Shown here: in pieces, positions 14,352-17,300 of the stretch | How positions within the stretch are numbered: the first letter of the stretch is position 1 | Layout of the letters: each line of letters starts with the position of its first letter | Assembly (NCBI GenBank): GCA_014382805.1 | Contig: JACNIZ010000251.1 | Location: 1 to 33,076, forward strand | Direction of reading: 5' to 3' | DNA length: 33,076 nt | Origin: Planctomycetota bacterium | GTDB lineage: Bacteria > Planctomycetota > UBA1135 | Notes under the pieces: model-generated | Told to the model about the DNA's origin: nothing | Databases searched by the model: none | What the model saw: only the letters and a program-made list of their open reading frames with translations | Translations under genes and position numbers: made by a program

Positions 14352-17300
14352 TTAGTGCTGAACTTCGGCGCCTGACCCGGTTGCCATCGCTTCGAATTCC
14401 AGCGCCTGTTGGTTGAGGCCGACGCCGCGGAAAACCTTCGCCAAGAAACTGTAGTTGCGACTGCGCTTCGCCAAGCGCTGCCCGAACAGCAAAGCCGAGG
14501 CGTCGGTGGCCTTCGCTTCCATCGTCGTCGTCACGCCGACGTCTCGCAGCAAGTTTCCAACGGCGAGCTTGCCTTGGTAGATGACCTCCAAATTGCCGTG
14601 GGAGTCCAGCAGTAAACTGGTGGGTAGCGGCGTGCCCGTTGAGGTGCCAAGCACTTCGTAAAGCAGCCCATCCAGCAGCGCCAGGAAGCGTTCGTCGGTA
14701 TATCCGGCATGTTGCTCGAGCCCAAAGATTTTGATGCGCTCAAGGGCCTTGGCGTGCTTCTCCGGCGGGTCAGTGCTCAAGGCCACGATCTGCAGCCCGC
14801 GGCCGCCAATTTGCTTGGCGCGGCGTTGGAAGGCTTGGAATTCCTTCAGGCAGTTTGCGCAATCCAAGCCCCACAGGTTGATCAAAATCGGTCGCCCCGA
14901 CAGCTGACCGACGGTGCGATTGGGGTCGTCAAAGCTCGGAATCACGACGTCGCGCATCGAGATTTTTTCGATCAGGGGGATGCGCACCACCGAATTATTC
15001 TCGCGCGCCAGGGTAATCGGTACCAGTTTGGCCAAGTTTTTGGCAGTGCGCACTCGGGTCTGGGTTGCAGCACCGCTGCCTTGGATTAGGCGGTAGCAGC
15101 CGTCCACAGCGACATCCGGGAAGGTTTCGCTAGTGCCGTCTGGCCAAATGACCTTGACCTCTTTGATCGCGGTTGCGTCGCCTAGGCCGAAGTGCAAGCG
15201 CTTCGAGGATTGAGCCAAAAAGCTGTCGCCTGCATGCAGAGTACGGCGGAGCTGGCGGTCTACTAAGGTCACAAACACGCGTGCACCGATGGCGTCGCGA
15301 TTGCTTTGTGTGCCTTGTAGATCCAAAGCCAAGTAGTGACCACCGTTCTGATTTTGGTTGCGCATCAGGCGCACGCGTGGCGCGGTGCGGCTGCGCAGGA
15401 CTAGGTCCAATTGGCCATCGCCATCCCAATCGACCGTGCCAACGCCACGTGCGTCATCAGCGAAGTCTGCGCCGCCTAGGGAGGAGATGTCAGCGAAGGA
15501 TTTACCCGCCAAATTTAAGAACAACCGGTTTTCCTCGCGGCCGCTCCAAGATGCTCCTTGGTTGCGGGTCATCTCTTGGATGCTCGCCCAAGCTTGGCGG
15601 TAGGCGTCGGTGGCTTCAGTATCGGTGGGGGATTGCGACGTCACGCGTCGCCAGAAAAAACTTCACAAGTCGTCGGGGTCGGGCCCGGTCAAGAACCCGT
15701 TGGGCGCATAGATGTCGGCATAACCATCGTTGTTGAAATCGACGAATTTGGAACCCCACGACCAACCGCCGACGGAAATCCCCGCCGCCATGGTGACGTC
15801 GCTGAAAGTGCCGTCGCCATTATTGGACAACAGCGAATTGCCGCGGGCGTGGCGGCCGTAATGCTGGTGTACGTCTTTATTCTGGCCTTCCATAAACTGA
15901 TCGGTCTGCGGCACAATGCGCTGACCTGCTGACGAAAACATGTTGGTGATCAACAGATCCATATCGCCGTCCAAGTCAAAGTCAGCGGTACTCAAACCCA
16001 TGCCGGCAGCCATATCTTCGGCGCCAACTTCATACGCAACATCAGTAAATTTGCCGCCTTCATTGCGGTACAAATTGTTGGTGCCAAAATCATTCGCAAC
16101 GTAAAGATCGACGTCGCCATCGTCGTCAAAATCTTCCCAAATCGAAACCAAACTGAACTTGCTGTTGTTTTGGTCCAGCCCGACTTCGGCAGTTGCATTG
16201 GTGAACTTGCCGTAGCCATCGTTGCGCCAGTAAAAGTTCGACGCTCCGTTATTGGCATCGTGGTACGGCGTCGGCACGCCGCCCATAATTCCATTGCCGA
16301 CGTAGCGCGTTGCGTATAAATCCAAGTCGCCATCGTTGTCTGGGTCGCCTGCACTGATGGAATAAATGTCTTCCCAGCCGGTGCCCCGCAACGGCGTGAA
16401 ATCGCCAAATATGCCCTTGCCGCTGTTGTATGCAATCATGATGTTGGCGCCGATGGTGGCGGCCAAATCTTGATCTCCGTCGTTGTCCAAGTCGATCAGC
16501 AATGCGCTGCGAGTATTTTCCAGGAAATCAAGGTTGGAGCGCTTGGAGGCGTCGGTTGCGGTTCCGTCCAGGCTATGCAAGAACAATCGATTAGGCAGAC
16601 CGCCTTGTTGAGTGATGTACAAATCATCCAAGCCATCACCGTTGACGTCGCCGATCGCAAAACCTTGAGAGCCAATGAAGGACTGCCCGATCAGTCGATC
16701 CGTCTTCTTATGGTAGTCATCCACACCGCGTAGAAATTCGTTTTGCCAAAATGCGTTGTGGCCAAAAACGTGACTGGTGATTTCACCGAACAGCGCCTTG
16801 CGAGTACGGATCTCTTCGTAGGAAGTCAGCTCGATGGACTCCAGTAACAAGTCTTCGTCGGTTTCGCCGATCTGCCAATAAGTGGTCCATTCGCTGTTGG
16901 CCTGAAGAACCCCCGACGCCGTTTTCAAGGATAGGTGTAACAGCATGTCGCCGCGGAAGCGTTTGGGACCTTCAATCTTGATACGAACGAACTTGAAAAA
17001 CGGATGGACATGAGGGTCGTCGCCGAACGGTGCCCGTACCGATTTAGCCAGGGTCGAAAGCTGGCCCAAGCTCATTTGTTCCTGCGGGATATTGGTTGGA
17101 CGCCAAGCGTTGGTGACGCCATCGGAAAAAACTTGTTCGAGCTTGGCCGGGCGCAGAGGAGTAAGGGTGTGAAAGTTCGCGCTTAGATAGTGATCTAGTT
17201 CATCCTCGTGCTCGTTCTTTAAAAAATATGCAAGCAGAGCCTTCACCGGCTTTTTAGCGTTGCCATGCAAAACTTCGGAACGCCAGCCGTCGGTTGCGGC

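What the first reader, a model, noticed from the sequence alone, without database searches (positions are those of the whole stretch)
15635..15665. Candidate selenocysteine codon with SECIS-like hairpin inside a CRTAC1-thioredoxin fusion
Seen: the two ORFs 15663..17552 and 14352..15644 are one frame interrupted by a single TGA (…GPDPDDL-TGA-SFFWRRVTSQSP…). The propeller fold is incomplete on either side of it, and the downstream part lacks a signal peptide. Eleven nt after the TGA is a perfect 6-bp stem GCGACG/CGUCGC with loop CGUGA, and 17 nt separate the TGA from the loop. Established: bacterial SECIS elements are stem-loops just downstream of UGA, with a guanosine early in the apical loop. 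Inference: this is one secreted selenoprotein of about 1041 aa. From unverified memory, similar planctomycete/acidobacterial proteins have a conserved DL(x)SFFWR(x)V block here; if so, x at the stop position would be decisive.
Basis: partly seen in the sequence, partly recalled or inferred. Interest (0 to 1): 0.9.

Follow-up and report, generated by a model that had tools for sequence, protein, structure and literature searches.

The report
New selenoprotein family: CRTAC1-thioredoxin fusion
A 'stop' codon in the middle of a large exported bacterial protein is almost certainly read as the rare amino acid selenocysteine, and the same codon and RNA signal recur in relatives across a bacterial phylum, so this looks like an uncatalogued selenium-protein family that databases have been cutting into two pieces.

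Summary
On the minus strand one frame (17552-14355, 1066 codons) is interrupted by a single TGA (15665-15663); a hairpin with loop CGUGA starts 11 nt later. The hairpin alone is no better than chance, but comparison is decisive. The genome has SelA, SelB, SelD (itself a Sec form) and tRNA-Sec. Of 26 same-family genomes, 24 encode the protein, each with an in-frame TGA. The TGA and a hairpin at the same spacing recur across the order and phylum; its pairs covary, including a C-G/G-C swap inside the loop, and the only 3 invariant codon columns of 336 lie in the stem. Genomes with the module have SelA in 48 of 49 cases, others in 204 of 350. Every Sec form with a readable C-terminal redoxin domain keeps its CxxC (78/78); 47 of 49 non-Sec forms lack it. 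Best reading: an exported redox enzyme whose Sec works with the fused TlpA-like CxxC. The family is absent from a 2026 list of 119 prokaryotic selenoprotein families and from NCBIfam. Sec insertion: about 0.97; the redox pairing is inferred.

The parts
14355..17552 (-). Coding sequence of the predicted selenoprotein (1066 codons, TGA read as Sec; 1041 aa if started at Met26); exported FG-GAP/CRTAC1 propeller + ASPIC/UnbV + TlpA/ResA-like redoxin domain
15663..15665 (-). In-frame TGA, predicted selenocysteine codon (residue 630), first residue of a predicted helix
15635..15651 (-). SECIS hairpin GCGACG-CGUGA-CGUCGC, 11 nt after the TGA, 17 nt from TGA to loop; covaries in relatives
15633..15665 (-). 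33-nt TGA+SECIS module matched by covariance model R1 (52.1 bits; this sequence is in the model by construction)
15666..17552 (-). N-terminal part: signal sequence, N-terminal domain and FG-GAP propeller up to the Sec codon; relatives' copies are deposited as a separate protein ending ...PDDL (e.g. P0030)
14355..15644 (-). C-terminal part after the TGA as ORF finders call it (GTG start inside the SECIS); relatives' copies are deposited as 'ASPIC/UnbV domain-containing protein' or 'peroxiredoxin'
14850..14861 (-). CANC (CxxC) motif, residues 898-901, of the TlpA/ResA-like domain; present in every Sec form with a readable domain

Best explanation
The gene encodes one exported selenoprotein of about 1040-1066 aa. 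SelB and tRNA-Sec decode UGA at codon 630 as selenocysteine, directed by a bacterial SECIS hairpin 11 nt downstream. The Sec sits at the N-terminus of a short helix in the CRTAC1-type FG-GAP propeller part. It most likely works as a redox-active selenol paired with the CxxC of the protein's own C-terminal TlpA/ResA-like domain, which would reduce or resolve the oxidised Sec after it has acted on a peroxide, disulfide or other oxidised substrate outside the cytoplasm. Shown by sequence: single frame, conserved TGA, covarying SECIS, complete sel genes, association of Sec with CxxC, helix-N-terminal placement in a confident model. Inferred: Sec insertion itself (no protein data), physical contact between Sec and CxxC, direction of electron flow, substrate.
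For: SelA, SelB, SelD and tRNA-Sec in the same genome, all over curated cut-offs; SelD is itself CSGUAAK. 24 of 26 same-family genomes encode the protein and each best match has an in-frame TGA; 68 of 89 loci with a readable site have TGA at exactly this codon. 64 distinct SECIS sequences: 96.7% of cells paired, covariation score 0.438 versus 0.168 shuffled, 0/500; loop is CGUGA, CGUGG or GGUCG in 61 of 64, with positions 1 and 4 swapping C-G/G-C. Only 3 of 336 codon columns are invariant, all in the stem. Pattern in 50 of 399 phylum genomes, 0 with the reversed control, 1 evident false hit. True-hit genomes carry SelA in 48 of 49 versus 204 of 350 others, Fisher p = 1.5e-9. CxxC in 78 of 78 Sec forms with a readable domain versus 2 of 49 other forms. 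AF2 pLDDT 90.7, pTM 0.90, helix 630-640. Part of the propeller and all later domains lie after the TGA; TlpA/ResA match. DsbD-type transmembrane domain in the genome.
Against: No protein-level data. Homologues without TGA rarely have Cys at the site, unlike most selenoprotein families. The hairpin alone is not significant. Sec/CxxC changes on the tree are few (6 for Sec; 3 independent supported pairs), so the phylogenetically corrected sign test cannot reach significance. The pattern search may have missed divergent forms.
Confidence: 0.8

Rival explanations
1. Sec is inserted, but it is not a thiol-type redox residue paired with the CxxC; it serves as a metal ligand or an independent catalytic residue, and the CxxC association reflects common ancestry.
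For: The site is E/D/N/S/A in non-Sec homologues; few independent changes on the tree.
Against: 78 of 78 Sec forms keep CxxC while non-Sec forms in the same family tree lack both cysteines, and the two traits never moved in opposite directions; the Sec sits at a helix N-terminus.
Confidence: 0.17
2. The TGA is a real stop and the two halves are separate, translationally coupled genes, or the hairpin causes regulated readthrough that does not insert Sec.
For: ORF finders call two genes; a GTG lies 7 or 8 codons after the TGA in nearly all TGA loci.
Against: That GTG is part of the SECIS (codon +7 or +8 depending on loop type); the downstream half lacks a signal peptide and starts inside the propeller; stem covariation, canonical loop and spacing, and SelA co-occurrence; full-length sense-codon homologues exist.
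Confidence: 0.02
3. Sequencing error, pseudogene or a genome-wide TGA=sense code.
For: The assembly is a fragmented MAG (402 contigs, 85% complete).
Against: Same TGA in 24 same-family genomes of 14 genera and in many more across the phylum; TGA still ends many of these very proteins as a normal stop; the downstream frame is conserved.
Confidence: 0.01

Closest known systems
Bacterial selenoproteins decoded by SelB/bSECIS (e.g. E. coli FdhF)
   Same: In-frame UGA, hairpin with loop 17 nt downstream (model 16-37), small loop with G at position 1 or 2 followed by U, N1-N2 complementary (bSECIS model, PMC13188914); sel genes present. The GGUCG loop of many relatives resembles the fdhF loop (from memory).
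   Different: Protein family not in the 119-entry 2026 inventory; Sec lies outside a thioredoxin fold and outside any UxxC/CxxU motif; Cys homologues are nearly absent.
CRTAC1 / ASPIC-UnbV / FG-GAP proteins (murine CRTAC1, PDB 9etn; bacterial CRTAC1 family)
   Same: Propeller and ASPIC/UnbV domain by Pfam, sequence and fold.
   Different: Murine CRTAC1 matches only the propeller/ASPIC part; most bacterial relatives listed here have E/S/A/N/D at the Sec site and no CxxC in the C-terminal domain.
TlpA / ResA / DsbE thiol-disulfide oxidoreductases
   Same: C-terminal domain matches TlpA and ResA by sequence and fold, with CANC as the CxxC.
   Different: Fused to a propeller; below NCBIfam family cut-offs; Sec is not in this domain, unlike the catalogued UGC-containing TlpA and Prx-like selenoproteins.

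Membership tests
Bacterial selenoproteins | In-frame UGA in a conserved reading frame with homology on both sides | tested here: met
Bacterial selenoproteins | bSECIS: 4-16 bp stem, 3-9 nt loop, G in first two loop positions, 16-37 nt from UGA, MFE at or below -7.5 | tested here: met
   6 bp, 5-nt loop CGUGA, 17 nt, -8.2 kcal/mol; covariation; criteria from PMC13188914
Bacterial selenoproteins | selA, selB, selC, selD in the genome | tested here: met
Bacterial selenoproteins | Cys homologues at the Sec position (usual, not universal, so not strictly defining) | tested here: not met
   3 Cys among 114 aligned database homologues; none among 21 sense-codon loci
Bacterial selenoproteins | Sec shown in the protein (75Se or MS) | not testable with these tools
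   no protein data
Previously catalogued selenoprotein families (119 entries, 2026) | Match to a listed family or to an NCBIfam model | tested here: not met
   no FG-GAP/ASPIC/CRTAC1 entry in Table 1; no NCBIfam model reaches its cut-off
CRTAC1/ASPIC-UnbV propeller proteins | FG-GAP repeats plus UnbV_ASPIC domain | tested here: met
TlpA/ResA-type thiol-disulfide oxidoreductases | TlpA-like fold with CxxC active site | tested here: met
TlpA/ResA-type thiol-disulfide oxidoreductases | Thiol-disulfide oxidoreductase activity | not testable with these tools
   needs an assay

The most novel reading that the evidence does not exclude
A new kind of extracytoplasmic selenoenzyme: Sec on a beta-propeller part is the catalytic selenol and the fused TlpA-like CxxC is its dedicated recycling partner. 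Sec and both cysteines are gained or lost together, with almost no Cys-for-Sec intermediate, which is why searches that look for Cys/Sec pairs missed a family found across Planctomycetota.
Probability: 0.55. Interest if true: 0.88.

Novelty: new variant of a known kind. Interest (0 to 1): 0.83.

Why it matters
It adds a large selenoprotein family that standard discovery rules overlook (PMC13188914 describes methods that rely on Cys/Sec pairs) and that public databases hold as two broken genes. It puts Sec in a propeller part rather than a thioredoxin fold, gives a testable Sec/CxxC pairing, offers a clear covariation case for a bacterial SECIS (including inside the loop), and points to selenium-dependent redox chemistry outside the cytoplasm in largely uncultured planctomycetes.

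Tried and rejected
Single-sequence folding as evidence: z = -0.18, not informative. Rfam: no match. Promoter/terminator scans: nothing above expectation. Residue at the site in sense-codon homologues as the decisive test: it points the wrong way here. SelA presence within the order: uninformative because 146 of 154 genomes have it; only the phylum-level sample discriminates. Sign test on independent pairs: too few changes. Measuring the Sec-CxxC distance: model coordinates not provided. One pattern hit (L127) rejected as chance. Two independent genes, pseudogene and alternative code considered and rejected (see rivals). Literature searches for a CRTAC1, ASPIC/UnbV or FG-GAP selenoprotein found none, but two relevant sources (Haft and Tolstoy 2025; the groundwater MAG survey of Deng et al.) could only be checked through the 2026 review. 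A model-based search of the own genome for further modules of this kind found only the two paralogues.

Full report
Observation. The frame on the minus strand from ATG 17552 to the TAA ending at 14352 is open except for one TGA at 15665-15663. Homology continues on both sides: FG-GAP repeats before and after, then UnbV_ASPIC and an AhpC-TSA/TlpA-like domain, while sense-codon relatives are single proteins of about 1000-1100 aa. Judged by folding alone it is unremarkable (z -0.18).

Machinery. The window's assembly (85% complete) holds SelA (E 3e-114), SelB (276.7 bits, cut-off 242), SelD (305 bits, with its own in-frame TGA; read here as CSGUAAK) and tRNA-Sec (72.9 bits, gathering score 47; ARAGORN agrees, anticodon tca).

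Conservation of the TGA. In 26 same-family genomes, 24 (14 of 16 genera) have the protein and the best match in each carries an in-frame TGA; the TGA falls at the same DL*SFFWR site in the loci read. In 154 genomes of the order, TGA forms and sense forms occur as paralogues, sometimes in the same genome. Of 89 loci with a readable site, 68 have TGA there; 21 have E, A, Q, N or D. TGA also terminates many of these same proteins, so the code is not reassigned.

SECIS. Across 30 same-family sequences only 3 of 336 scorable codon columns use a single codon, and all three (+6 CGC, +8 ACG, +9 TCG) lie in the stem. Over 64 distinct sequences from many families the proposed pairs form in 96.7% of cells against 81.9% in shuffles, with 68 cells changed on both sides against 24.5 (0/500), and a sharp drop when the partners are slid. 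The pair next to the loop is GC in 30, AU in 29 and UA in 2; loop positions 1 and 4 are C-G in 36 and G-C in 26. Loops are GGUCG, CGUGA or CGUGG in 61 of 64. One caution: some sequences came from a pattern that required C or G at both loop positions, though not complementarity. A distant paralogue group (L082-L086) has a stem of different sequence one codon further downstream with loop CGUGR. One sense homologue, L098 (Asn at the site), still carries the stem, which looks like a recent loss. All bSECIS criteria printed in PMC13188914 are met.

Distribution. A 30-nt pattern (TGA, xFWR context, SGUSR loop) hits 50 of 399 genomes of the phylum, with none for the reversed pattern. Every hit in the loci opened, except L127, lies in a CRTAC1-like frame. 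Among the 49 true-hit genomes 48 have SelA, against 204 of 350 others (Fisher p 1.5e-9); the exception is a 67% complete MAG. The phylum is inferred from record names: L020 is 'Planctomycetota bacterium isolate NAT19', and P0122, 98% identical over the C-terminal part, is named Planctomycetes.

Annotation. Databases hold N-terminal pieces ending at ...DDL or ...NDL (P0030, P0054, P0076, P0100) and over a hundred C-terminal pieces of about 400-440 aa, most starting MTSQSP or VTSQSP, that is at the GTG inside the SECIS; 119 of 120 listed have a CxxC. Names include 'ASPIC/UnbV domain-containing protein', 'peroxiredoxin' and 'redoxin domain-containing protein'.

Function. The C-terminal domain is TlpA/ResA-like. 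Mapping its active site shows CxxC in 78 of 78 Sec forms with a readable domain; 45 of 47 other forms and both readable Cys forms lack it. The exceptions are P0025 and P0036, TPR fusions. On a propeller-only tree Sec changes at least 6 times by parsimony (4 forced by supported branches) and CxxC 5 times, never in opposite directions, but too few supported independent pairs exist for a significant sign test. Position 670 (Ser in 98% of Sec forms, 16% of others) and positions 541 and 542 also track Sec and may line its pocket (inference). The AF2 model is confident (pLDDT 90.7, pTM 0.90) and places residue 630 as the first residue of helix 630-640, a usual setting of reactive Cys/Sec (established knowledge). 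A DsbD-type transmembrane domain is present in the genome and could supply electrons (inference). The mechanism proposed is therefore a Sec-centred redox reaction outside the cytoplasm with the fused CxxC as recycling partner; the substrate is unknown, a peroxide or disulfide being the likeliest classes.

Novelty. The 2026 inventory of 119 prokaryotic selenoprotein families or subfamilies has no FG-GAP, CRTAC1 or ASPIC/UnbV entry, full-text searches found none, and no NCBIfam model passes its cut-off. Two primary sources could only be checked through that review. The recoding mechanism is the known bacterial one; what is new is the protein family, the place of the Sec and its pairing with a distant CxxC.

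Noticed in passing
G000 contig C49:4854-7118 (L049): A second Sec-form paralogue in the same genome with the same 33-nt module (52.1 bits), cut by the contig end.
   Followed up: partly
L082-L086 (G006, G018, G003, G019, G005): Divergent TGA paralogues (DV/DL-U-SSFWR or STFWR) whose hairpin is moved one codon downstream with an unrelated stem sequence but a similar CGUGR loop.
   Followed up: partly
L098 (G080:C458): Asn-form homologue that still keeps the RRVTSQSP stem sequence: apparent recent Sec loss.
   Followed up: partly
L046 (G002:C60): Second paralogue with TGA plus one in-frame TAG; stem altered to CGCUGC yet still paired. Possibly a decaying copy or an assembly error.
   Followed up: no
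G018:C10:11636-13315 (L088): CRTAC1 homologue match of residues 62-625 with one in-frame TAA; the match ends before the Sec site.
   Followed up: no
window 20162-22735 (-): Another CRTAC1-like gene with TPR repeats; Thr at the aligned site (weak alignment there), no CxxC.
   Followed up: partly
window 11905-12672 (-): YaaA-type peroxide stress protein (PF03883, 279 bits) about 2 kb beyond the 3' end of the selenoprotein gene; no link shown.
   Followed up: no
window 22748-24832 (-): Cytochrome c554-like gene next to the TPR-CRTAC1 gene.
   Followed up: no
L010 (G000:C76): SelD is itself a Sec protein (CSGUAAK), with a hairpin GCGCAG-GUU-CUGCGU downstream; SelA lies on the same contig.
   Followed up: partly
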